Shown: positions 9,468-28,660 of the stretch, piece after piece
Position numbering within the stretch: the first letter of the stretch is position 1
Layout of the letters: each line of letters starts with the position of its first letter
Source: Fusobacterium necrogenes
GTDB lineage: Bacteria > Fusobacteriota > Fusobacteriia > Fusobacteriales > Fusobacteriaceae
DNA length: 64,000 nt
NCBI RefSeq assembly: GCF_900450765.1
Contig: NZ_UGGU01000003.1
Span: forward strand, 1,502,854 to 1,566,853
Direction of reading: 5' to 3'
Position numbers and translations under genes: made by a program
Notes under the pieces: model-generated
What the model was told of the DNA's origin: nothing
Database searches by the model: none
What the model saw: the letters and a program-made list of their open reading frames with translations, nothing else

Positions 9468-10277
9468 ATGAAAATAGGAATTTTACAGCTAGATATTTCT
9501 AAGGATATAAATAAAAATATTACTAAAATTTCAAAAATAATTTCAAATAATAATGCTGATATATTTATTTTACCTGAACTATCAGATAGAGGATACCTTT
9601 ATAATAATAGAGAAGAGCTTTTTTCTATAGCTACAGAATTAGAAAAAAATATTTTAATAAATAAGTTGAAAAATATAACATTAGAAAATAAGAAATCTGT
9701 AATAGTTGGAGTAGCTGAAAAAGATGGAGAAAAAATATATAACTCTGCTATTATAATAGATAAAGGACAGGTAATTGGAGCATATAGAAAAATTCATTTA
9801 ACTGATTTTGAAAAGAATTTGTTTGAAGCTGGAGAGGAAAATAAAATTTTTAAAGTTCAGGGAGTAAATATAGGACTTCAAATATGCTTTGATGTGTGGT
9901 TTCCAGAAATATCAAGAGAACAATTAAATTTAGGAGCTGATTTAATTTTTATTCTAGGCAATTTTGGAGGAATAACAACATATGAAATTTGTAAAATAAG
10001 AGCTATTGAAAATTTAATTCCTGTTATTCTTTGTAATCGTGTTGGAAAAGAAGAAAATAATAGTTTATCAACAAGCTTTTTAGGAAATAGTACCATTTAT
10101 AATTATGAGGGAACTCAATTAATTTTTCCTTTAAAAGAAAAAGAAATCTATTTAGAATTTGATATACAAGAGTTTAGAAAAAATTCAAATATAATGTGTA
10201 AAGATTTTGATTTTGAGAGAAAAAAGGGGTATTTTTGTGGAAAAGAAAGAAAAGATATTGAAATATATAAAAGATAA
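9468..10277 (+). CDS. Carbon-nitrogen hydrolase (nitrilase superfamily)
   Basis: A 269-residue member of the nitrilase/amidase superfamily, cytosolic, hydrolysing a C-N bond in an amide or nitrile-like substrate that sequence does not identify. The Glu-Lys-Cys catalytic triad is visible: Glu in FILPELSDRGY, Lys in AYRKIHLTDFE and Cys in LQICFDVWFPE. Length is typical for the small branch. It has an AAAGGAG ribosome-binding site. Its 3' end overlaps the next gene, a nucleotidyltransferase, by about 41 bases, so the two are probably co-translated. It lies in a patch otherwise rich in broken genes, yet is itself intact. Confidence 0.88.
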   Translation: MKIGILQLDISKDINKNITKISKIISNNNADIFILPELSDRGYLYNNREELFSIATELEKNILINKLKNITLENKKSVIVGVAEKDGEKIYNSAIIIDKGQVIGAYRKIHLTDFEKNLFEAGEENKIFKVQGVNIGLQICFDVWFPEISREQLNLGADLIFILGNFGGITTYEICKIRAIENLIPVILCNRVGKEENNSLSTSFLGNSTIYNYEGTQLIFPLKEKEIYLEFDIQEFRKNSNIMCKDFDFERKKGYFCGKERKDIEIYKR

Positions 10278-10851
10278 ATATAATCCTATAAGTATATTTG
10301 TCTATGGTTCTTTCAATAAAGGAACAAATAATCAAAACAGTGATTTTGATTCATTAATTATAGTAAATGAAAAAGTTACTTCGTACGATAATACTATGAT
10401 TTCAAATACCTATTTAGATTTATTTATCTATACTTTAGAAGAAATTGAACACCTACAAAACCTACAAAATTTTGTACATCTTTATAATGCTTCTCTTGTA
10501 TTGGATAACCAAAATATTGGGAAAAATTTCTTAAAAAAAATAAAAAAGTATGTGGACTTGAATTCCTTAAAATCTTTAGAAGAGAAAAAACATTTATCTA
10601 TTTGGATTGATAAAATGATTGAAAGAATAAAAGTAAAAGATACAGAAGGAATGTATAGATATCATTGGTTGATAATGGACTCCTTGGAACTATATTGCAT
10701 ATTTCGTGATAAATTTTTTCGGGGTTCAAAGGATACTATAGAGTATTTAGAGAAATATGATGAAGTTGGATATAAATTATTTTGTACATCTTTAAAAAAT
10801 TTTGATATTGATAATCTTGAAAAATGGTGTTTATATATTAAAACAAATTAA
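10237..10851 (+). CDS. Nucleotidyltransferase-domain protein (MNT fold)
   Basis: A 204-residue protein. The N-terminal part carries the minimal nucleotidyltransferase signature, VYGSFNKG followed after a few residues by NSDFDSLIIV, giving the G-S motif and the D-x-D metal ligands. The C-terminal half is helical and resembles the C-terminal domain of stand-alone aminoglycoside-type or uncharacterised nucleotidyltransferases (WLIMDSLELYCIFRDKFFRG). I prefer the GTG at 10237, preceded by an AAGGGG ribosome-binding site, over an in-frame TTG at 10207. It overlaps the C-N hydrolase gene by 41 bases. The substrate is unknown. There is no separate HEPN partner, so it is not an obvious MNT-HEPN toxin-antitoxin pair. 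Confidence 0.75.
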   Translation: MEKKEKILKYIKDKYNPISIFVYGSFNKGTNNQNSDFDSLIIVNEKVTSYDNTMISNTYLDLFIYTLEEIEHLQNLQNFVHLYNASLVLDNQNIGKNFLKKIKKYVDLNSLKSLEEKKHLSIWIDKMIERIKVKDTEGMYRYHWLIMDSLELYCIFRDKFFRGSKDTIEYLEKYDEVGYKLFCTSLKNFDIDNLEKWCLYIKTN

Positions 10852-10944
10852 TTTTCTAATATATTTGAGAAATTTCCTCAAATAATTCTAAATCAAATTA
10901 AAACATGATATAATTTTCTTAAAAATAGTATAAGGAGGTTGCTC

Positions 10945-12160
10945 ATGTTAATACAATTTTCTTTTAAAAATTTTAAATCTTTTAAAGATGAAGTAACTCT
11001 TGATATGACAGCTTCTTCAATCAAAGAACATACAGATAAATTAATTGAAAATGGAAATGAAAAATATCTTAAAGTTACAGCTATATATGGTGCTAATGCC
11101 TGTGGAAAATCTAATGTTATAGAAGCTTTTTCCCATATGAAAAGAATTATTTTAGATTCTTTTACTGAAGAAGCAAAGTGGGAAAATATCCCTCTAAAGA
11201 GATTTGCTTTTGATGAAGAGAGTAAAACTCTAATAGTATGTTTGAAGTCTTTTTTAAATACAATAATGAAGTATATCAATATGGCTTTGAATTAGATAAT
11301 CATAGTATAAAAGAGGAATGGCTATATAAAGAAAAAAAGTAAAATATAGAAAGTTTGAGTTAGTTTTTGCTAGAGAAAATAATAGTTTTGAACTTTCAAA
11401 AGAATTGAAAATATATAGTGAAATGTTAAATGGACTTTCTGAAAAAACTCTTATCTTATCTTTCTTAGCTAATATTAAAATTGGAGATATAAAGAATACT
11501 TATGAGTGGTTCAAAGAAACTAAAGTTTTAAATCTAGGAACTTTTAATTCAGGAGAAAATTTATCTGAATTTTTACCAAAAAAGCTATTAAAAGGAGATT
11601 TAAAAGCTAAAGATAATTTCAATAATTTTCTTTCAGATATAGATGTAGGAATTAAAGATATAAAGATTGAGGAAACTAATAATGAGGATAAAGGGAAATA
11701 TAGTATTTTTTCTATTCACTTAAACAACGATACTAATAATAATGAATATCTGCCTATATCTGAAGAATCTGATGGAACATTAAAGATGATTTCTCTTTAT
11801 TCAGATATAGAGAAATGTCTAAATAATGGTGGAACTATCTTTATAGATGAACTTGACGTAAAGTTACACCCACTTTTAACTAAATATTTAATTCAAAAAT
11901 TTCACAATAAAAATAGTAATCCTAATAAGGCACAACTTATTTATACAACCCATGATGTAATTAACCTAAAGAAAGAAAACTTTAGAAGAGATGAGATTTG
12001 GTTTGTATAAAAAAATATAAAGAATGAATCAACACTTTATTCCCTTGTAGAATATAAAATAGATAATAACAAAGTTAGAAATGACGCAAGTTATAATAAA
12101 GACTACTTACTTGGTAAGTATGGAGCTTTACCATTATTAAAAGAGTTTGAGAAAATATAA
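10945..12160 (+). pseudogene. Broken RloA / AAA15-family ATPase (AbiL-type defence ATPase)
   Basis: Originally about 405 codons encoding an SMC/ABC-like ATPase of the RloA (AAA15) type. The start has an AAGGAGG site and an ATG at 10945. The Walker A motif is intact (AIYGANACGKSNVIEAF) and the Walker B is FIDELDVKLHPLL with TTHDV downstream. The gene is broken three times: the frame shifts near 11238, after which FEVFFKYNNEVYQYGFELD continues in another frame; shifts again near 11340, resuming at KYRKFELVFARENNSFELSK; and has an in-frame TAA at 12008-12010 after EIWFV, beyond which the expected sequence continues to LLKEFEKI. It is followed directly by a broken RloB. No full-length product is expected. 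Confidence 0.8.
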
Positions 12161-12162
12161 TA

Positions 12163-12730
12163 GGATTTGATGATTTACATAGAAAAAGACAAAGGAATTT
12201 AAGGAAAAGAAAAACTTTATAACTCTAAAAGTTGACTGTGTAGATATTATAGTAAAAGGAAGAAATACTGAATCTCTAGTTGAATATACTAAAAAACTTA
12301 GAGAAATGCACTAATTGGTTATGGAAATGTTTGGTGTGTATTTGATAAAGATTCATTTAATCCTAATCAATTTAATAGTGCTATAATAAAAGCTGAAAAA
12401 TGAAGATATAAATGTTACTTGGTCTAATGAAGCTATTGAACTATGGTTCTTACTTCATTTTGAATTTATTAGTACTGGAATTTCAAGGGAACAGTATATT
12501 GGAAAATTAAACTTCTACTTTAAAAAAATAGTATAAATAATGGAAAGTATAGAAAAAATCTTGCTAATATTTATGAAATTTTAGAAACTTATGGTAATTA
12601 TAATTCGGCTCTTAAATTTGCTAAAAGATTAGAAGAACAACATAAAACAAATACTCCAGCTAATAGTAAACCTATGACCAAAGTTTATAAGCTAGTAGAA
12701 AAACTAAAAGAGTTATTAAATAGAAAGTAA
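12163..12730 (+). pseudogene. Broken RloB-family protein (partner of RloA)
   Basis: Pieces of an RloB-like protein of about 190 residues lie in several frames: DDLHRKRQRNLRKRK, then VDCVDIIVKGRNTESLVEYT, then VWCVFDKDSFNPNQFNSAI, then NEAIELWFLLHFEFISTG, and finally FAKRLEEQHKTNTPANSKPM to the stop. The VFDKD and AIELWFLLHFE blocks are characteristic of RloB. At least four frameshifts separate them. It follows the RloA remnant, which is the usual order of the two-gene RloAB/AbiL-like anti-phage system. The system is clearly dead here. Confidence 0.72.
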
Positions 12731-12732
12731 AA

Positions 12733-12772
12733 AAAAGCTGTTGTACTCAATTACAACAGCTTTTCTTTTTTT
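12733..12772 (+). terminator. Strong Rho-independent terminator after the RloB remnant
   Basis: A perfect 13-bp stem (AAAAGCTGTTGTA, 12733-12745, with its complement 12752-12764) closes a 6-base loop and is followed by a T-rich tail. The terminator is intact although the genes before it are broken. Confidence 0.85.
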
Positions 12773-12793: not shown

Positions 12794-13361
12794 TTAATTT
12801 ATCATTTGATTTACTTTAATAATTAATTTTGAATAAATATTTTCAACAATCCACCTTTCACTTGATTTTTGGGGGATTTCTTCTATATTTATCAATTCTA
12901 AGTTACTATTTCATCATGTTTTATAAATAATTTTTCAGTAGTATTAGCTTCTAATAAAAATGTCAAATTCAAATGGAGATGTGAAGAAATATATTCTCCA
13001 TTTTTCATATGCCCTGCTACTGTAAGTACTTCTAAAGAAAAAATATTTTCAGATAGAAACCTAATATTAGTTAGCCCACTTTCTTCTTTTATTTCTTTCA
13101 AAATTACATTTTTCAAATTACTATCTCCATCAGTATGTCCTCCTAACCAAATCCATGAATCATATATATTATGATAACACATTAATACTTTTTTTCTATC
13201 AAGACTTACTATCCAAGTAGAGACAGTAAAATGGTATTTTTTATTATCTCTTGTTAAAATACCTTTTTCTTTTTCAAATATTTCTAAAATAAGCTCCTTA
13301 TCTTTTTTTCTTGTTCATTAAAAGGTACATAATTTTTAATATCTCTTTTTAATTTTTCCAT
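12794..13361 (-). pseudogene. Frameshifted NUDIX hydrolase
   Basis: A NUDIX gene of about 187 codons running from an ATG at 13361, with a good GAGGTAGGA ribosome-binding site, to a TAA at 12794. The NUDIX box is readable (GGHTDGDSNLKNV then LKEIKEESGL), as is a strand before it (HFTVSTWIVSLDRKKVLMCY). Two frameshifts break it. The first is at a seven-A tract (13303-13309 on the minus strand), where one more A would join the N-terminal part MEKLKRDIKNYVPFNEQEK to the rest. The second is near 12905, after which INIEEIPQKSSERWIVENIY continues in another frame. The longest intact piece is 94 codons (12898-13182). NUDIX enzymes hydrolyse nucleoside diphosphate derivatives; the substrate is unknown. 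Confidence 0.75.
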
Positions 13362-13441: not shown

Positions 13442-14731
<1,290 letters not shown>

Positions 14732-14739
14732 CTACTAGC

Positions 14740-15435
14740 CTACTTTATTTTTTCAATTTCAATATAGTTAATATTTTTATTATGCTTACATAAAAACAGT
14801 TGTTCAAACTCTGTTTTTATATTATTTTCTACTTTTTCACTTTTATGTAAATCTGAAGTATAATACACCACTCTATATCCATTTAAATTTTCTACTAAAT
14901 CAATTACATCTTGATAATATTTATCATGATCAGTTTTAAAGTAAAACATTCCACCTTTTTTCAATATTACATCTAAAGTTTTGAAAAAACTCTCTTGCAC
15001 AACTCTATTTTTCTCATTTTCTTCCCAAGGATCTGGAAAATTTACATAGATACCATCAACTTCATTTTCAGCTACAAACTCAAGTATCTCTTCTCCTCTT
15101 CTTCTTAAGAAAAGTGCATTTGTAGAACCATCTCTTTTTACTTTTACAGCTGATAGTACAAGTCTTTTAAATCTAAGTTCTAATCCCATATGATTTCTCT
15201 CAGGATATCTCTTTGCCATTCCTTGTGCAAAATTTCCACTACCTGAACCTATCTCTAAGTATATAGGATTATTATTTCCAAAGAACTCATGCCATTTTCC
15301 CTTATAAGAGTCCATTATTTTCTTATCATATATGATATATTCTGGATATTCTAAAAGCTTAAACATATATGGATTATAATTTTTTCTTGGACTTTTGAAA
15401 AAGTGGCTCCATAGATTTTCTCTTAAATCTTCCAT
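14740..15435 (-). CDS. trmB: tRNA (guanine-N7-)-methyltransferase
   Basis: A 231-residue SAM-dependent methyltransferase that forms m7G46 in the variable loop of tRNAs. The SAM-binding motif is YLEIGSGSGNFAQGMAK, the catalytic-site block is IYVNFPDPWEENEKNR, and TEFEQLFLCK is the family's C-terminal motif. It starts 12 bases after the end of waaA and is followed by purA at 17 bases, so it is co-transcribed with both. Confidence 0.95.
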   Translation of the reverse strand: MEDLRENLWSHFFKSPRKNYNPYMFKLLEYPEYIIYDKKIMDSYKGKWHEFFGNNNPIYLEIGSGSGNFAQGMAKRYPERNHMGLELRFKRLVLSAVKVKRDGSTNALFLRRRGEEILEFVAENEVDGIYVNFPDPWEENEKNRVVQESFFKTLDVILKKGGMFYFKTDHDKYYQDVIDLVENLNGYRVVYYTSDLHKSEKVENNIKTEFEQLFLCKHNKNINYIEIEKIK

Positions 15436-20395: not shown

Positions 20396-23300
20396 TTATG
20401 GATTAACATTATAACTTCCTTTCTGATGTGAAGTAGCTGCATTATATCCTGCTTTTGCAGGGATAATTATAGAGAATATTCCTCCCTTACTTGATTCATC
20501 AGTTACAACATGCTGGGTATTGTTAATATCATTCTTTATATCTGAAGTATCGCTCTTTTCTCCATTAATATTAACATCACCTTTTACAACTATATTTTCA
20601 ATACCTATAGCTGATTCAGTTACTACTTCTTTTTTAAGCTTATCAGCTATCTGTCCGGTAACACCTAGCTCTCCAGCTTGTCCTGCTGAAACAACTACAT
20701 CCGCTCCACCACTGTTACTTTTAGCAGTAACATCATCCAATATAATATTTCCTTCTACTTCTAGACTTCCTTTTTTACTTTCAGATCCTAATACAGACCC
20801 TTTCATATTAAGATTTCCATCAATTTTAGCATTAAGTTCATTTCCAGCTTTAATTCCAGAAACTATTGTAGTTTCAGCATCTTCATAAATATGTCCTCCA
20901 CCTACAGCTCCTGAAAAATTCCCACTAACAATAGTGTTTGATGTAACTTTTATTCCTAATCTAGTTCCTACACTTCCAAATTTTTTATCTTTGTCATGTA
21001 CATCATTTAAACTTTCTATATTTACATCACCATTTACTGCTAAACCAACATTATTAGTAGCTTCAATACTTCCTCCCTTGATATTTAAATCATCCTTAGC
21101 CTTAATAGTAATATCTTTAGCATTCAATTTAGATTGAATATTTTTACTATTATACTCATCAGTTGTATCAGCACTTACATGAGCCCCTAAATTTAGTCCT
21201 ACACCTGCTCCAGACATAGGATTAACACTTGCTGCTTGTCCAAATCTTGACTCTCCATCAGCAGTAATTTTAAAAGAATCTTCGGTAGATTTTGCTGCTT
21301 CAATAGTTATATCTCCAGCTGAATTTAAAGCTAACTCTTCTTCAGCAGTGATATCAACTCCTACTAATTCTATTCCATCACCAGTTGAAGTTAATGAAAT
21401 ATTCTTTCCTGACATACTAGAAATATTTTCTTCAGTTTGATTAACATCAGATTGCTTATAAACAAATCCAGCCTTTAAATAGTTTCCTAAACCAGCAGTA
21501 TCATTAAAAATCATAGTTGTTAAAGCTCCAACTGATTGTAAAACTCCAGTTGTAGGATCTAGCTCAGATCCATTTGATATCATACTTCCAAGTTTATTTG
21601 CAGCATCTACTATCGAACTCTCAAATGCAGTTGAATTTTCAAGATAGAAACTAAATCCATTTTCTTTTTGCTTATATGTATCTTCATACTTTGTAGTTAT
21701 AATCTTTCTAGCTACAACATCAATATTGTCAGTTGCAGAAAAATCTACTCCTCCTATATCAGTAGTATTACCAGAAGTAATATTAATATTTTTTCCAGAT
21801 ATTTTACTATTTTCCCAATTAACTTCTTCTGTAATACCATGATAATTTTCTAATTTTACTCCCATATTAAGATAAGCAGTAGGATCTAACATAGTTCCTC
21901 CTGAACCAGTAGGATATGTTGGTAATGGGGCTGTTGCTGAACCATCAACAGTTTCAATAGAGTAAGTTTTTTCTTCAAAATTGGCAGATGAGCCAGCTGC
22001 TCCAGCCCAACCAACAACATATAGTCCAGCTCCAAAGGAATCTACTTCTTCTTTTATCTCATTTTTACCAGCTTCAAATGTTACATTATTTCCTGCATCA
22101 AAATTAGCTTCTCCTTTTACCTCTACTTTTCCTCCAACTACTTTGATGTCATTTCCTGCACTTATATTTAAATCTCCATCACCAGTTATATTACTTCCTT
22201 TACTTAATGATGCTTCTTTACTTGTTTTTGTTGAACTACCTCCAAATACTTGATATACATCTTTTCTTGTACTTTCCTTTATCTCATCTCTTCCATCTAT
22301 TATATTTACATCATGTTTTGCTGAAATATTAGTGCTTCCATTTGAATTAATATTACTTCCTTTTATTGTCGCATCATGTCCAGCTGATATATATACATCT
22401 CCATTTGTATTTATATTTGATCCATGTGATAATGATGCATTAAAATCTTTTGATCTATATTCTGATGTTAATAACCCTCTTACTGTATCTAAAGTTCTTC
22501 CTGAGCTTGAAATATGTACTACATCAGCTGAATCTTCTACAGTAACATTATCTTCTGCGCTTATACTTATTGTATTTGATTTACTTTTCTCTGCAATCTT
22601 TTCATCTACATCATTTGTTGATAAATCGCTTCCCTTTATATTTACATTTTTTCCACTAATATTAATATTTGAACCTTTAACTTCTGTTCCATTTGAAAGA
22701 GCACTACTTCCTGATTCATTAGAATATCCTTTATCACTATATTCATGCTTATATTCAGAAGAGACAGTGTATATATCTTCTATATTAACATCGCCACCAG
22801 CATTAATATTAATACTTCCAGCATCTCCTGCTATAACATCTTTAGAATCTTTAGCAAAAAGTTCTTTATAATAATTTATATCTTTTACTACTTCTACATT
22901 TTCAACTACTTCATTTCCATTACCTTGACTAACATCTTGAGTAGTTGTTGCCTCTTGTGTATCATTAGTTCTAACTTCATATCCTGAAGCTGTTAACGAC
23001 CCACCTTTTATGTTAATATTATTTTTTGCATCTACTTGAATTCCATTATTAGCTTCTATACCTGCTTTATCAGAAATAATTTGATTTCCTTTTTCATCAA
23101 TTCCTAATGTAGACTCTATGTTGACATCATTTCCACTAACAATTACATTATCACCTTTGAGGCTACCACCTATCATATTAATATTACCAGTAGCATCTAC
23201 AGCAATATTTTTATCTGCGCTAATTCCTCCACTCATTCCACCAGAACTATTATTAGTAATATTTCCTGAAGATTTTATAATAACATTACCAGCAACATCA

Positions 23301-26300
23301 ATATTTCCATTAGTATTACTAAATGATGTATTGTCACTTATAAAGTCTCCTCCAGCTTTTATAGTTGAAGTTCCACCATTACCTTGATTTTGCGCTATAT
23401 CTATTCTACTATTTTTAGATAAATATAATTGTGGAGCTAAAACTTTTTGTCCGTTAACCTCTACCTCAACATACCATACTATATCATGCTCTAAGCTGTT
23501 AATTTGTTCTTGTGTTAAAGCTTTTCCGAGTTGAAGTCCAAGTGCAGTAGACACTTTTGCTGCATTATTAATAAGAGCTTGAATATCCTGTGCATTAATA
23601 TCTTTTACATAACCAAGTCCTTTTTGAATCATATCTTTAATTAATAAATAATCATAATATGCATCCCCTAGAACTGATGATGTTTTATTTTTATCATATC
23701 CTAATTGCTTAAAGAAATAATCAGAACCATAGAAATTATTAGGATCAATAAATTCTATATTAGTTTCAAATAAAGGCTCTCCAGGTTGTGGATCTCCTAC
23801 TACAGGTTTAAACAATCCATTTTCACCAGTTGGAACATCTATAAAGATTATAGGATTTACAGTTCCTGATACAGCTATTGTTCCTGCTAAGTTTCCTGTT
23901 TCAGCAGTTATAGTCACTCCATCTATAGTTATACTTCCAGTTGCTAATTCTACATCATGAGGATATTTTATACCATTCACTTCTTTGATATCGTTTATAT
24001 TTGCAATATTTACTCCTAAATTTCCTTCGATACCATCAACAACATTCTCTCCTATAGTGATATTTACGCTTTTGTTTCCTCCACTTTCTCCACCATTATT
24101 TACTAAACTTCCATCAGTGTGGGTAAAATTTCCTCCTGCTAATATTTGAGCATTTCCATTAGCTGCATAATATTTAAAATTAGCATCTAAATTCCATTTA
24201 TCTTGAGAAATAGGTTTACTCTTATCTTTCCAATCGCTACCAAGAACACTTGAAAGTGCCTTATTAAGTAGTTCATTATCATTTAAAGCTAAAGCTCTAT
24301 AATATGCTTCTCTTCCTTTTCCTAAGTATCCTTGAGTCAATGCATCATATAGACTTCCTTCAAAAGATACTCCAGAATTTCCATGCGCATTAGTTAAATA
24401 AAGTTTTGTTTGCCATGAAAGTTTAACTTTAATAAGTTTTAAAAGTTCTATTACATCAACTTCTTTATAAGATGTATTATTTTGAATATCCCCTTTTATA
24501 GTTATATCCTTAGCTGCTGCAATAGTACCAGATTCATTTAAAACTTTGGTTGTAGCTCCTGTATCACCAGTTATATTTATATTTCCTGCAGCTTCTATTG
24601 TTGCTTTATCTGTTACTACGCTATTATTTTCAATAACTGGTACCCAAACCTCTGTAGTATCTAAGTGATAATTGAAAGTATCATCCCATCTTACTGTATG
24701 TTTTGAATTTTCGGTTCCTACAACATCATATTTGATATCAACTTTACTCTTATTAAGAAGAACATCTGTTTTAATACTTAAATCTTTACCACTACTTATA
24801 GTTCCAGCATCATTTATAATAGCTTTAGCTTTTAGACTCATATCTCCTTTGCTCATAATAAGAGAGTTTAATTTTAAATATATTTTTTCAAGAGCTTCTA
24901 TAAGAAGATTTTGTCCAGCCCAAATAGTTGTACCTTCTTGATTTAAAACATTAGTAGCTTTTAAATTAACATCTTTATTTCCAACTATCATTCCTTCATT
25001 AACTATATCTCCAGAAGTTGATATAGTTATACTTCCAGGAGTTTGGAATTTTTTAACATTAATATCTCCAACAACATTTTCAAGAGTGATATCTCCATTA
25101 CTTATCATAGTACCAGCAACAGTATTAGCGCTTGAATTAGCAAAACTACTACGGAATCCACTACTTAAATTTTGTCTTGAAGAATCAAGCGAAACTCTTG
25201 TACTTTCACCAGTCATTAATGTACCTGTATTATTTAATGATCCTGTCTTTACATCTATATTTTTAGCTGAAAGCTCTCCAGTATTTGTGAAAGATTTAGA
25301 ATCTACTTTCAAATTATTTTCAGTCTGAACTTTACCAGCTAATGATACATCACTAGAAGAAGCTTCTATATCTATATTACCTTTAGCTTTTAACTCTTTC
25401 ATTGATTGAGTTATTCCATTTCCCAAATTAGATATACTTAATTCTGAATTTGATTGGATAGAGTTAGTATTAGAAAAAGAATTATCAACGGTTATTGAAA
25501 CTCCATTTCCAACAACTTCTCCACTATTTGAAAAGTTTTTAGATTTTAAACTTATTTTATCAGTTGAAGAAAGATCTCCGCTATTACTTATATCTTCAGA
25601 TACATTAGTTACTATTTTACCATTAGCAATCAATTTTCCAGCATTTGTAAGAGATGATCCTCCTATATTTATATCTCCATTTACATTAATATTTCCGTTA
25701 TTTAAAGTATTTCCATTAGCTACCTTTAATATTTCTCCAACTAATAGTTCTCCACTATTATTAACTCCTCCATTTATATTTAAGGATTTTCCTACAGATG
25801 CTGTAGCTCCTGATTTATTCGAGAAGTTTCCTGTCAGATTTAAGCCTCCTCCAGTTTCTAATTTACCAGAGTTTTCTAACTTAGAAGAAGTAACATCTAC
25901 ATTACTTCCAACACTTAAATTGTGTGAATTAAAATCCCCAGATATATTTGCGCTTAAGTTCTCCTTAATTGTTAAATCTTTTGAACTAAAACTCTTACCC
26001 TTAACATCTAAGTTCTTTCCTACTGACATTACTCCATTATTTTTAATTGAATCTTCTGATTTTAAACTTACATCACCTTTAGTTATTACTATTCCATTAT
26101 TTTCTAAAGTTGTTTTAGTTGTTATTGCTAAAGTTTCTCCTTCTATCACACCTAAATCAGAAAAAGCTGCTATCTTAGCTTTTAATTCTGCTAATTCTTC
26201 CGCGCTTAAATTTTCTGAATTTAACTTTTGTAATAACTCTAAATACTCTTTTATTTTTTCTTCATTTCCATTAGAAACAAAACTATCACCACTGATTATA

Positions 26301-28660
26301 ATTTTCTTCCCAGCAGTTATTCTTTGAGTATTCACTATTTTTCCAAGAGCTTCAATTAAAAGATTATCTCCAGCTTGTAATACCCCTGAATTAATAACGC
26401 TACCAGTTTCTAGAGTAAGATCTTTTTGTGAAGTAACAACTCCTTTATTTTCAAAAGACTCTTTTGTAGTTATTTTAACATTATCTCCAGATAATACTCC
26501 AAGCATTCCTGTTTTAGATAAGATATCTTTTAAATTATTTAATTTATTTTTAACCTCTTCTAATCCACTTAAAGTAGCTTTTAATTCTGCAAGTTGCGCT
26601 GGATCTTTTTCAGCTGCTATTTTCTTATTTAACTCTGATATAGAATTTTCTACTTTTGTTAACTCCTCCTCAGAATATTGATATAGAGCTCCTAAATATT
26701 TCTCTATCTCTTCTGAGCTTCCAGCATTGAGAAGTTCTTTAACATTTATAACTAAATCTTTTACAGCCGTTATATGTCCCGCATTTAAAAATTTACCTTG
26801 TACAGCCTGAATTAATATAGAATCTGCACCTAGTTTTCCTGTATTTGTTAGATTATTTGCGCTTATTAACTTAAGATCTTTTGTAGCTAATATCTCTCCA
26901 TTATTAACTAGTTCTCCAACAGTAGTAGTTAGAATAATATTTCCATCACTAGCAATAACTTTTCCATTTAAAGCATTTATAAGTTCTTGAGCAGTGATAG
27001 TTATATCTTTTGCTGATATATTTCCATAGTTTTCAAATTTTCCTTTTAAAACTTCAATTTTTAATTTTCCATTAGGATCTACTACCTCATTTAACTCTTT
27101 TTTATTTTCTCTAATCTCTCCTTTGTTAACAAAAGAAGAATTAGCTGTTAACTCAAGATCACTTCCTTTTAATAAAGCATTCTTTTCATTTAATAAGCTT
27201 TCAGCAGTAATAGTTAATTTTCCATCTGCAGAAATAATTCCTTTATTTACTAATTCTTTAGTAAATATTTCTACATCTTTACCTATTATTCCTGTACTTA
27301 CCCATGTAATCTCTTCTGAAGAATAAACTTTTCCACTTTCAATATCTTTTACTTGAAGTGATCCATCACTATTTGATACTATTACTAACTTATTAGAATC
27401 AACTCCTGATACTGTAGGAATTAGTACTCCTTGTACATCTAACTTCTCTGAAAGCTTTAAAGTTATAGAATTTTTACTTATCAATCTAGCAGAAGTCTTA
27501 TCTTGTAGAGTTAATCCTTTAGCAGAAATAACTATATTTCCTCCAGTAGATTGAACAGCTGATCTTATAGTTCCATTTCCTTCTAATTCAAGAGTAATAT
27601 CATTCCCTGCTGAAATAGAATTAATTTGATCTTTTCCAGCAACTTTTATGATTCCACCTTTTGTTTCTAGATCTTTTCCTTTGAGTTTTACACCTTTCTT
27701 CGCGTTAAGTGTAGCTACTGAAATATTTCCATTAGCTTCAATCGCTATATCACCTTCACTAAATATAGCTCCTTCATGTTTTACTCCAAGTCCTTGATCA
27801 GTACTGATAAGTCTAATATTTCTTCCATACATAGCACCTAATCCAGTAGCATATATACCATACTTATCTTGTTTACTATCAGAAGAAGATTTTATAATAG
27901 GATTACTAAAATCTCCCTTCTTTAATTCAATTTTATTTTGTCCTGCGATTAAAGTAATATCAGGAGTTTTTTCTTCCTTTATAGCAGATATTTCGTTGTG
28001 TATCTCAATACTTCTTGCCAAAACATTGAAATAATCTCCACTAGTTCCAACTCCATTTAAAAGAACATTTCCTTTTTGTACATCAAAATTAATATTAGAG
28101 TCATCCTTTAGAACTTTACCAGTACTTAAAGTAACTCCATTAGTATTAATAAAGGTAGCTCCATTGACATTTATTCCATTTTCATTAGCAAGTATGAAAT
28201 CAGCTCTTTTACCAAAAACTTCAATGGTTCCATCTATATTAGATACTTTATTTCCACTAACTTCATTCAAAATAGTAGTAGCGCTACTATTTAAGTTAGG
28301 GTTTTTAGTTACATACCCACCAATTTGTGAGACTCCATGCTCAGTACTATTGTTAAATATAAGCCCATTCCCTGCACCGACACTTAAATCAGTAAATTTG
28401 TTGTGAGAAATCCCATTTTTATCAGGATTAACAATATTAACAACATCTGTTCCATTAGCAGAATTTCCTAAAGTTGGAGCATTGTTTCCCTGAACAGGAA
28501 TAACAGTGTTTCTAGCTCTCAAATCTCTAGCTAAAATAACTTCTTCAGTAGTCCCCAATCCCCCAGTAATTAAAAAACTGACAACCAAAGCTAATGTGAT
28601 ACTTTTTTTGCCCTTAAGATTGCGTTTTAAAACTTTTTCCGACAGTTTAAAATCTTTCAT
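20396..28660 (-). CDS. Filamentous-haemagglutinin-type two-partner-secretion exoprotein (2754 aa)
   Basis: A very large TpsA-type surface/secreted protein. A long signal peptide (basic start, then ITLALVVSFLITGGLG, likely cleavage before RDLRAR) precedes the TPS domain at about residues 45-290, with KNPNLNSSATTILNEVSGN and ADFILANENGINVNG matching the NPNL and NPNG-like motifs recognised by TpsB transporters. Next comes a long beta-helix of degenerate repeats of the form SGDNVKITTKESFENKGVV. Two charged helical insertions occur at about 650-720 (SEEELTKVENSISELNKKIA) and 798-836. A middle domain with many aromatics lies at about 1390-1750, followed by more beta-helix repeats rich in GSNIN and GHDATIKGS. 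The C-terminus (SYNVNP) has no VENN motif or recognisable toxin tip. No TpsB gene is in the window. The likely role is adhesion. Confidence 0.9.
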   Translation of the reverse strand: MKDFKLSEKVLKRNLKGKKSITLALVVSFLITGGLGTTEEVILARDLRARNTVIPVQGNNAPTLGNSANGTDVVNIVNPDKNGISHNKFTDLSVGAGNGLIFNNSTEHGVSQIGGYVTKNPNLNSSATTILNEVSGNKVSNIDGTIEVFGKRADFILANENGINVNGATFINTNGVTLSTGKVLKDDSNINFDVQKGNVLLNGVGTSGDYFNVLARSIEIHNEISAIKEEKTPDITLIAGQNKIELKKGDFSNPIIKSSSDSKQDKYGIYATGLGAMYGRNIRLISTDQGLGVKHEGAIFSEGDIAIEANGNISVATLNAKKGVKLKGKDLETKGGIIKVAGKDQINSISAGNDITLELEGNGTIRSAVQSTGGNIVISAKGLTLQDKTSARLISKNSITLKLSEKLDVQGVLIPTVSGVDSNKLVIVSNSDGSLQVKDIESGKVYSSEEITWVSTGIIGKDVEIFTKELVNKGIISADGKLTITAESLLNEKNALLKGSDLELTANSSFVNKGEIRENKKELNEVVDPNGKLKIEVLKGKFENYGNISAKDITITAQELINALNGKVIASDGNIILTTTVGELVNNGEILATKDLKLISANNLTNTGKLGADSILIQAVQGKFLNAGHITAVKDLVINVKELLNAGSSEEIEKYLGALYQYSEEELTKVENSISELNKKIAAEKDPAQLAELKATLSGLEEVKNKLNNLKDILSKTGMLGVLSGDNVKITTKESFENKGVVTSQKDLTLETGSVINSGVLQAGDNLLIEALGKIVNTQRITAGKKIIISGDSFVSNGNEEKIKEYLELLQKLNSENLSAEELAELKAKIAAFSDLGVIEGETLAITTKTTLENNGIVITKGDVSLKSEDSIKNNGVMSVGKNLDVKGKSFSSKDLTIKENLSANISGDFNSHNLSVGSNVDVTSSKLENSGKLETGGGLNLTGNFSNKSGATASVGKSLNINGGVNNSGELLVGEILKVANGNTLNNGNINVNGDINIGGSSLTNAGKLIANGKIVTNVSEDISNSGDLSSTDKISLKSKNFSNSGEVVGNGVSITVDNSFSNTNSIQSNSELSISNLGNGITQSMKELKAKGNIDIEASSSDVSLAGKVQTENNLKVDSKSFTNTGELSAKNIDVKTGSLNNTGTLMTGESTRVSLDSSRQNLSSGFRSSFANSSANTVAGTMISNGDITLENVVGDINVKKFQTPGSITISTSGDIVNEGMIVGNKDVNLKATNVLNQEGTTIWAGQNLLIEALEKIYLKLNSLIMSKGDMSLKAKAIINDAGTISSGKDLSIKTDVLLNKSKVDIKYDVVGTENSKHTVRWDDTFNYHLDTTEVWVPVIENNSVVTDKATIEAAGNINITGDTGATTKVLNESGTIAAAKDITIKGDIQNNTSYKEVDVIELLKLIKVKLSWQTKLYLTNAHGNSGVSFEGSLYDALTQGYLGKGREAYYRALALNDNELLNKALSSVLGSDWKDKSKPISQDKWNLDANFKYYAANGNAQILAGGNFTHTDGSLVNNGGESGGNKSVNITIGENVVDGIEGNLGVNIANINDIKEVNGIKYPHDVELATGSITIDGVTITAETGNLAGTIAVSGTVNPIIFIDVPTGENGLFKPVVGDPQPGEPLFETNIEFIDPNNFYGSDYFFKQLGYDKNKTSSVLGDAYYDYLLIKDMIQKGLGYVKDINAQDIQALINNAAKVSTALGLQLGKALTQEQINSLEHDIVWYVEVEVNGQKVLAPQLYLSKNSRIDIAQNQGNGGTSTIKAGGDFISDNTSFSNTNGNIDVAGNVIIKSSGNITNNSSGGMSGGISADKNIAVDATGNINMIGGSLKGDNVIVSGNDVNIESTLGIDEKGNQIISDKAGIEANNGIQVDAKNNINIKGGSLTASGYEVRTNDTQEATTTQDVSQGNGNEVVENVEVVKDINYYKELFAKDSKDVIAGDAGSININAGGDVNIEDIYTVSSEYKHEYSDKGYSNESGSSALSNGTEVKGSNINISGKNVNIKGSDLSTNDVDEKIAEKSKSNTISISAEDNVTVEDSADVVHISSSGRTLDTVRGLLTSEYRSKDFNASLSHGSNINTNGDVYISAGHDATIKGSNINSNGSTNISAKHDVNIIDGRDEIKESTRKDVYQVFGGSSTKTSKEASLSKGSNITGDGDLNISAGNDIKVVGGKVEVKGEANFDAGNNVTFEAGKNEIKEEVDSFGAGLYVVGWAGAAGSSANFEEKTYSIETVDGSATAPLPTYPTGSGGTMLDPTAYLNMGVKLENYHGITEEVNWENSKISGKNINITSGNTTDIGGVDFSATDNIDVVARKIITTKYEDTYKQKENGFSFYLENSTAFESSIVDAANKLGSMISNGSELDPTTGVLQSVGALTTMIFNDTAGLGNYLKAGFVYKQSDVNQTEENISSMSGKNISLTSTGDGIELVGVDITAEEELALNSAGDITIEAAKSTEDSFKITADGESRFGQAASVNPMSGAGVGLNLGAHVSADTTDEYNSKNIQSKLNAKDITIKAKDDLNIKGGSIEATNNVGLAVNGDVNIESLNDVHDKDKKFGSVGTRLGIKVTSNTIVSGNFSGAVGGGHIYEDAETTIVSGIKAGNELNAKIDGNLNMKGSVLGSESKKGSLEVEGNIILDDVTAKSNSGGADVVVSAGQAGELGVTGQIADKLKKEVVTESAIGIENIVVKGDVNINGEKSDTSDIKNDINNTQHVVTDESSKGGIFSIIIPAKAGYNAATSHQKGSYNVNP

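What the first reader, a model, noticed from the sequence alone, without database searches (positions are those of the whole stretch)
10945..12730. Dead RloA/RloB (AbiL-like) anti-phage pair with intact terminator
An AAA15-type ATPase with good Walker A and B motifs, followed by an RloB-like gene, is broken by two frameshifts plus a nonsense codon (GAA to TAA type) in the first and at least four frameshifts in the second. RloAB/AbiL-type pairs are known defence modules. Still readable blocks and a perfect terminator suggest recent decay, marking this as a defence-island site.
Basis: partly seen in the sequence, partly recalled or inferred. Interest (0 to 1): 0.5.

Follow-up and report, generated by a model that had tools for sequence, protein, structure and literature searches.

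The report
Dead AbiL defence operon, surviving operator
This stretch holds the wreck of a known two-gene bacterial anti-virus system (AbiL, also called RloA/RloB); comparing it with intact relatives turned up a short palindromic DNA switch in front of many such systems that I did not find described and that suggests how they are kept in check.

Summary
Window 10,945-12,730 is a decayed AbiLi/AbiLii (RloA/RloB) pair: all four AbiLi pieces match PADLOC AbiLi and three of four RloB pieces match Pfam RloB. Against an intact same-genus pair (76-81% identity) the ATPase gene has two frameshifts and one nonsense codon. RloB has four frameshifts, no matching start codon, and a deletion of about 38 codons that removes its invariant TE motif. 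Sequencing error is unlikely. "Defence-island site" is not supported. The relic keeps its promoter and a palindrome, TGAG-N7-CTCA, 5 nt before the -35 box. The same dyad precedes AbiL operons of other bacteria: 22 of 95 non-redundant upstream regions against 0.08 expected; 12 of 16 in a hold-out set against none in 12 random draws. Its presence follows the AbiLi tree (8 changes; shuffled labels at least 14), and it is rare elsewhere in those genomes. It is missing before 73 of the 95. Likeliest reading: a dead AbiL module once autoregulated through this operator; the protein that binds it is inferred, and a host Fur-family regulator is the main rival.

The parts
10866..10880 (.). Palindromic operator-like dyad TGAG-N7-CTCA upstream of the operon
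   Evidence: 13 of 14 match to the 15-bp dyad; both 4-bp arms intact; same place as in G003.
10886..10914 (+). Promoter-like pair TTCTAA / 17 nt / TATAAT, -35 box 5 nt after the dyad
10945..12160 (+). abiLi (rloA) relic: AAA_21-type ATPase, two frameshifts and one nonsense codon
   Evidence: PADLOC AbiLi, Pfam AAA_21 over cut-off in two of four pieces; 76-81% identity to the intact G003 copy.
12008..12010 (+). In-frame nonsense codon in the abiLi relic
12160..12730 (+). abiLii (rloB) relic: Toprim-like effector, start codon of the relative absent, about 38 codons deleted, four frameshifts
12210..12220 (+). Junction of the deletion that removes the invariant TE motif (EGxxTE) of RloB
12733..12764 (+). 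Intrinsic terminator, usable from both sides
12898..13361 (-). Convergent Nudix hydrolase relic, both ends out of frame; neighbour, not part of AbiL
   Evidence: intact 207-aa relative in G004. Pfam gave no match for the 94-aa open piece; the name comes from the relative and my reading.

Best explanation
The stretch is a pseudogenised AbiL operon. In its intact form the first gene makes an ABC/AAA ATPase (AbiLi, RloA), thought to sense infection, and the second a Toprim-like nuclease (AbiLii, RloB) whose release stops growth and aborts the infection; that mechanism is inferred from relatives, not shown here. In this genome both genes are broken, and the effector has lost one of its invariant motifs. 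The promoter and a palindrome just upstream of the -35 box survive. Because the same dyad precedes many AbiL operons in other bacteria, and its sequence changes with the AbiLi clade rather than with the host, I infer that it is the operon's own operator, bound by AbiLi, AbiLii or their complex to hold the toxic pair at a low level. Shown: family, breaks, conservation, position and rarity of the dyad. Inferred: binding, repression and the abortive-infection role.
For: Family. Breaks. Not sequencing error: 37 intact ORFs of 200 aa or more outside the relic (48,363 bases) hold 543 A/T runs of 5 or more (they were picked as intact, and the run contexts of the relic's breaks were judged by eye), and a nonsense codon and a deletion are not homopolymer slips. 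RloB residues T40, E41, Y44, D100, D102 and A190 are invariant in 24 relatives; the TE motif is deleted in the window. A predicted RloB model (pLDDT 90.7) aligns with OLD Toprim domains (6nk8 Z 7.8, 148 residues, 4.6 A). Published passages: F. nucleatum AbiLii stops E. coli growth (PMC3985639); RloB is related to OLD_TOPRIM (PMC10440598). Operator: exact 15-mer in 5 of 90 upstream regions, 12 or more of 14 letters in 9 of 90 against 0.19 expected; unbiased scan of 3,328 dyads, TGAG-N7-CTCA first with 22 of 95 against 0.08, hold-out 12 of 16 against none in 12 random draws; 14 of 19 new loci at 12 or more of 14, one of them a near-duplicate; of 27 dyads, 20 have a promoter pair downstream, with the -35 box 4-8 nt away in 18 and 5 nt away in 11, against 4.6 and 0.9 on average when the downstream sequence is shuffled (largest 10 and 4 in 500); 0.83 per kb upstream of rloA against 0.017 per kb elsewhere; TGAG presence needs 8 changes on the AbiLi tree, 300 label shuffles need 14 or more (mean 18.9); same-genus G003, G002/G005 and G011 differ in dyad.
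Against: The TGAG dyad is absent from 73 of 95 upstream regions; 34 of 70 tree rows have none of the scanned types; 7 of 8 plasmid/phage copies lack it, the Lactococcus prophage copy among them; L202, L204, L207, L212 and L214 lack it within the new loci. The clade effect can in part be plain common descent of the upstream sequence. No gene of the intact operon has a recognised DNA-binding domain. Fur-like boxes with the same outer letters exist, and one exact AbiL-type dyad precedes a dps-like gene. AbiLi of F. nucleatum did not neutralise AbiLii (PMC3985639, passages). The structural match of RloB is middling: Foldseek has none at E 0.001, the best VIA row is an uncharacterised protein (2p62, Z 9.1), and lumazine synthases and designed folds score about as high as OLD.
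Confidence: 0.82

Rival explanations
1. The dyad belongs to a host regulator, most likely of the Fur family, so AbiL is switched by metal or redox state rather than by its own products.
For: Boxes TGAGAATNATTCTCA with the same outer arms stand before feoAB (L216) and before a Fur-family regulator gene with a metal ABC transporter (L223); one exact AbiL-type dyad stands before a dps-like gene (L217) and another lies by a ZIP-type gene (L222) (gene names are my reading of the translations).
Against: AbiL dyads carry A at the seventh letter in 21 of 23, where those boxes carry T; same-genus hosts have different dyads according to their AbiLi type; Bacteroidales AbiL operons carry TTTGTA-N7-TACAAA or CGTA-N7-TACG; 9 of 19 genomes have no other site.
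Confidence: 0.15
2. The frameshifts are assembly errors and the operon is intact in the living strain.
For: Several frameshifts lie at or beside short A runs (by eye); the neighbouring Nudix gene is also out of frame.
Against: 543 A/T runs are intact in 37 long ORFs around it; a nonsense codon, an absent start codon and a deletion of about 115 bp are not such errors.
Confidence: 0.03
3. The relic is still useful, for example its promoter and operator act as a decoy or drive the stretch after the genes.
For: The promoter, dyad and terminator look intact, and AbiLi shows no significant excess of amino-acid change.
Against: No open frame of 60 aa or more on that strand lies between the ATPase pieces and the terminator; recent decay explains the intact parts without function.
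Confidence: 0.04

Closest known systems
AbiL (AbiLi/AbiLii, RloA/RloB), Lactococcus lactis and relatives
   Same: Gene order, families (PADLOC AbiLi and AbiLii, Pfam AAA_21 and RloB) and compact operon.
   Different: Both genes are broken here. The dyad before the promoter is not mentioned in the passages on AbiL that I saw.
PARIS (AriA/AriB)
   Same: ATPase sensor plus separate Toprim nuclease; the intact G003 ATPase also matches AriA (3.6e-33).
   Different: AbiLi scores far higher (2.8e-93), and the second gene matches RloB/AbiLii; AriB did not come up.
OLD/Gabija-type ATPase-Toprim nucleases
   Same: RloB model aligns with OLD C-terminal Toprim domains at Z 6.8-7.8.
   Different: Two separate proteins instead of one chain; the match is middling.
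Autoregulated toxin-antitoxin operons (e.g. AbiE, bound at inverted repeats by AbiEi)
   Same: Toxic pair with an inverted repeat at the promoter (PMC7319586, only the start of the abstract seen, in the listing).
   Different: AbiEi binds DNA; no AbiL gene has a recognised DNA-binding domain, and no binding was tested.

Membership tests
AbiL (RloA/RloB) | First gene an AbiLi-type ATPase | tested here: met
   Four of four pieces have PADLOC AbiLi as best match, E 1.2e-38 to 1.7e-5; Pfam AAA_21 over cut-off for two of four pieces.
AbiL (RloA/RloB) | Second gene an RloB/AbiLii-type protein, overlapping or adjacent | tested here: met
   Pfam RloB 48.6 bits over cut-off 31.5; three of four typed pieces match RloB, two of five AbiLii; intact G003 copy 168 bits.
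AbiL (RloA/RloB) | Invariant RloB motifs (TE of EGxxTE, and DxD) | tested here: not met
   DxD still readable, TE motif deleted: a relic, not a working member.
AbiL (RloA/RloB) | Open reading frames | tested here: not met
AbiL (RloA/RloB) | Phage abortive infection; toxicity of AbiLii | not testable with these tools
   Only published for relatives (PMC3985639, PMC10440598, passages).
Toprim/OLD nuclease fold (RloB) | Toprim fold | tested here: inconclusive
   Model of L048 RloB: Foldseek no match at E 0.001; VIA-align OLD Toprim Z 7.8 to 6.8 among unrelated rows of like score.
PARIS (AriA/AriB) | AriB-type effector | tested here: inconclusive
   No AriB match; RloB pieces match AbiLii/RloB.
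Autoregulated operator | Inverted repeat at a fixed promoter position | tested here: met
Autoregulated operator | Bound by the operon's own product | not testable with these tools
   Only indirect: dyad presence follows the AbiLi tree.

The most novel reading that the evidence does not exclude
AbiL operons of several phyla carry their own operator: a dyad of fixed 4-N7-4 geometry (TGAG/CTCA in Bacillota, a Spirochaetales genome and the window's genus; TGTA/TACA and CGTA/TACG in Bacteroidales) set against the -35 box or between promoter and start. Its letters change with the AbiLi clade, so the ATPase or the Toprim effector, neither a known DNA-binding regulator, reads it and represses its own toxic operon until infection titrates it away. 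The dead copy in this window still carries its site.
Probability: 0.5. Interest if true: 0.72.

Novelty: new member of a known kind. Interest (0 to 1): 0.5.

Why it matters
The relic itself is ordinary: one more lost AbiL pair, in which both genes, the effector motif included, have decayed. The operator matters more. I found no regulator of AbiL described, and in the one published test that I saw passages of, its presumed antitoxin failed to neutralise the toxin (PMC3985639). A conserved site that travels with the operon gives a direct way to ask what keeps AbiL silent and what phage infection changes: a gel shift and a promoter fusion would decide. It could also serve as a DNA signature for AbiL operons whose proteins have diverged or decayed.

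Tried and rejected
Defence-island reading: no AbiL was found in the stretches beside purA of 11 same-genus genomes. The tex gene was reached within the fetched stretch in 5 of the 11, so the interval was seen whole only there. Of ten flanking genes of the window, three gave PADLOC hits, to methyltransferase- and kinase-type models.

Viral collection: one scan with the G003 ATPase found no relative; annotated phage records gave 10 matches, 4 of them over at least 80% of the query, plasmids 179 records, all under 60% identity.

Solved structures: no sequence match for the intact ATPase at 0.01; for the intact RloB four rows of E 0.014-0.41 that look like chance. Foldseek gave no match at E 0.001 for the RloB model.

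Relative-rate test: no significant excess of window-side changes in AbiLi against any of ten outgroups or their consensus; RloB 11:1 (p 0.006) and 12:3 (p 0.035) against two of seven outgroups, not significant against the other five. I do not use it to say which gene died first.

Other matches of the dyad: the two further one-mismatch hits in the window's own genome and the exact one in G004 lie inside coding genes; I read them as chance. One search used a mistyped pattern with 8 instead of 7 bases between the arms; I count it only as a wrong-spacing control (none of its 23 listed hits is at AbiL). One search used the right spacing on the same 19 genomes, which I had chosen because their AbiL site fits; 'all 19 have it' is therefore no evidence, only the rarity of other sites is: 40 distinct sites in all, 20 of them at AbiL by coordinate arithmetic. 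I looked at 10 of the other 20 (G000's was seen). One search used 8 Bacteroidales- or Fibrobacter-titled genomes, five of them chosen because their AbiL site fits: 9 distinct sites, 5 at AbiL; the other three genomes have no exact site at AbiL.

Rows dropped: one search dropped 16 of 111 upstream regions as near-copies or too short. The tree has 70 of the rows: 36 of the 46 loci L082-L127, L079 and L080 (short), and L194, L201, L209 (copies) were left out. Its dyad labels come from loose patterns, and 24 of its 67 inner branches are poorly supported. Expectations come from 12 random draws.

In the window rows I set the start one base late; the true distance from dyad to ATG is 79, not 80. My notebook says 15 of 19; the right count is 14 of 19.

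Not in print: string search for the two exact cores of the dyad gave one unrelated human-cell paper (other variants were not searched); AbiLi/AbiLii gave two relevant papers among the 20 listed of 123; RloA/RloB no regulatory study among the 20 listed of 28; a search on abortive infection and operators gave only other systems in the 12 listed of 36. The 1999 AbiL paper was not read.

Full report
What was checked. The window is G000:C3:1502854-1566853 of an unnamed 2.0-Mb genome in five contigs. It reads like a Fusobacterium to me, but no call names it. All four AbiLi pieces match PADLOC AbiLi best (3e-24, 1.7e-5, 1.2e-38, 1.3e-9), and two of five RloB pieces match AbiLii (4.5e-5 and a weak 0.021). 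Pfam gives AAA_21 over cut-off for two of four AbiLi pieces and RloB for three of four RloB pieces, and the RloB profile finds the place in the genome at 48.6 bits with seven stops inside.

How it is broken. The nearest intact pair is in a same-genus genome, G003: ATPase 407 aa, RloB 227 aa, over Pfam cut-off for AAA_21 and RloB and best PADLOC AbiLi and AbiLii. A frame-aware alignment gives two frameshifts and one nonsense codon in the ATPase gene and four frameshifts in RloB. RloB also lacks the relative's start codon and about 38 codons; in DNA, window 12,213 and 12,217 correspond to G003 positions 119 bp apart. In 24 RloB relatives the residues T40, E41, Y44, D100, D102 and A190 are invariant. 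The deletion takes the TE motif; the DxD is still readable.

Error or decay. Outside the relic, 37 ORFs of 200 aa or more cover 48,363 bases and contain 543 A/T runs of five or more. They were chosen because they are open, so this is a density argument, not a blind test. A nonsense codon and the deletion do not fit homopolymer error. Ka/Ks to G003 is 0.13 (ATPase) and 0.18 (RloB) with Ks over 1, so most divergence arose while the genes were under selection. The ATPase shows no significant excess of window-side changes; RloB shows some. Decay is therefore late relative to the split from G003.

The site. In the window, tex, chorismate mutase, aroA, a CN-hydrolase, a nucleotidyltransferase, the relic and a Nudix relic precede purA (tex and purA named by my reading). 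In 11 same-genus genomes the fetched stretch beside purA holds other genes and no AbiL; it reaches tex in 5 of the 11. The window's stretch is a patchwork: 9,450-10,374 matches G009 at 90%, 10,866-12,699 matches G003 at 75-77%, 12,824-13,364 matches G004 at 72%. Nothing here marks a defence island.

Other AbiL pairs in relatives. RloB passes its Pfam cut-off in 12 of 61 genomes. Reading the loci, eight pairs are open (G002, G003, G011, G016, G017, G022, G042, G048), three are broken (G000; G028 in both genes; G005 in RloB), and G036 and G056 show fragments of one gene; the weak hit in G044 was not examined.

The operator. The DNA match to G003 starts at 10,866, ahead of the gene. There both have a dyad: TGAGAAATTTCCTCA in the window, TGAGAAATTTTCTCA in G003. 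Upstream regions of rloA from the named genome collection and relatives showed the exact dyad in an Enterococcus (L050), a Ligilactobacillus (L049), a Spirochaetales genome (L060) and G022. With the whole set, 5 of 90 have the exact 15-mer and 9 of 90 at least 12 of 14 letters, against 0.19 expected from first-order Markov sequences.

Unbiased test. I scanned all 256 four-base arms with spacers of 0-12 in 95 non-redundant upstream regions (of 111): TGAG-N7-CTCA was first, 22 against 0.08 expected. New loci were taken by protein similarity alone from 105 and 397 genomes, of which 7 and 14 had a match. Of 19 non-query loci, 14 have at least 12 of 14 letters (13 of 18 without one near-duplicate); of 16 non-redundant ones, 12 have the dyad, against none in 12 random draws. 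Four of these have ATPases of only 27-32% identity to L049 (L199, L200, L211, L213).

Place. Of 27 dyads listed, 20 have a promoter pair downstream by the scan; in 18 the -35 box is 4-8 nt after the dyad, in 11 exactly 5 nt, and two lie further off (L198, L200). With the downstream sequence shuffled 500 times the means are 4.6 and 0.9, the largest 10 and 4. In the window the pair is TTCTAA-17-TATAAT at 10,886-10,914. The other seven dyads lie 31-35 nt before the start codon (L072, L075, L080, L199, L200, L211, L213).

Rarity. In L048-L127 the dyad occurs 10 times in 12.0 kb upstream of rloA and 19 times in 1,099.8 kb elsewhere. In the 12 same-genus genomes the exact dyad occurs twice, once at G003's AbiL and once inside a dprA-like gene of G004. 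In the genomes of L049 and L050 it occurs once each, at AbiL; in that of L060 twice, once at AbiL. With the looser pattern, 19 genomes chosen for their fitting AbiL site hold 40 sites, 20 of them at AbiL, and nine genomes hold no other.

Whose operator. TGAG presence follows the AbiLi tree: 22 of 70 rows, 8 changes, against 14 or more in each of 300 label shuffles (mean 18.9). This also fits plain common descent of promoter and gene together. Within one genus, G003 and the window have TGAG, G002 and G005 have AAGTGA-N5-TCACTT, and G011 has neither. Bacteroidales copies carry TTTGTA-N7-TACAAA or CGTA-N7-TACG at recurrent distances; the first was sought in eight genomes, five of them chosen because it is there: 5 sites at AbiL, 4 elsewhere. 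A host regulator would not be expected to change with the AbiL clade. The rival is the Fur family, whose boxes share the outer letters, but the seventh letter differs in 21 of 23 AbiL dyads. One exact AbiL-type dyad stands before a dps-like gene in G113, which speaks for the rival.

Limits. The dyad is not universal: absent from 73 of 95 upstream regions, none of the scanned types in 34 of 70 tree rows, and TGAG-N7-CTCA in only 1 of 8 plasmid or phage copies, the Lactococcus prophage copy being without it. Binding is untested. RloB as a Toprim nuclease rests on published passages (PMC10440598, PMC12409363) and a middling structural match. PMC3985639 (passages) reports that F. nucleatum AbiLii stops E. 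coli growth and that its AbiLi did not neutralise it.

Noticed in passing
window 12898-13361 (-): Nudix hydrolase relic with both ends out of frame; an intact 207-aa relative exists in G004 (L156 7363-7986).
   Followed up: partly
window 9468-10851: CN-hydrolase followed by an overlapping nucleotidyltransferase; G009 (L155) has the hydrolase at 86% identity but only 45 residues of the transferase.
   Followed up: partly
window 13442-15435: purA is 96% identical to G005 but only 81% to G009-G011, while the next gene trmB is 94-95% to G009-G011 and 91% to G005: purA seems to have been replaced in one line.
   Followed up: no
L157, L159, L158, L160: Further decayed AbiL genes in relatives: both genes in G028, RloB in G005, fragments in G036 and G056.
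   Followed up: partly
L082-L127 upstream of rloA: Many Bacteroidales-type AbiL operons carry CGTA-N7-TACG about 100 nt and/or TTTGTA-N7-TACAAA-like dyads about 26-50 nt before the start.
   Followed up: partly
L236, L237, L239, upstream of rloA: Three AbiLi copies from phage or plasmid records share a string close to GCGTTGATTTTTCACAAAA, not a simple dyad.
   Followed up: no
L217 3039-3053; L216 3155-3169; L223 3046-3060: AbiL-like or Fur-like dyads before a dps-like gene, feoAB and a Fur-family regulator gene.
   Followed up: partly
L047 (G001): purA, trmB and tex are each split by a frameshift in G001, which suggests a poor assembly.
   Followed up: no
window 20396-28660 (-): One ORF of 2,754 aa, not searched.
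   Followed up: no
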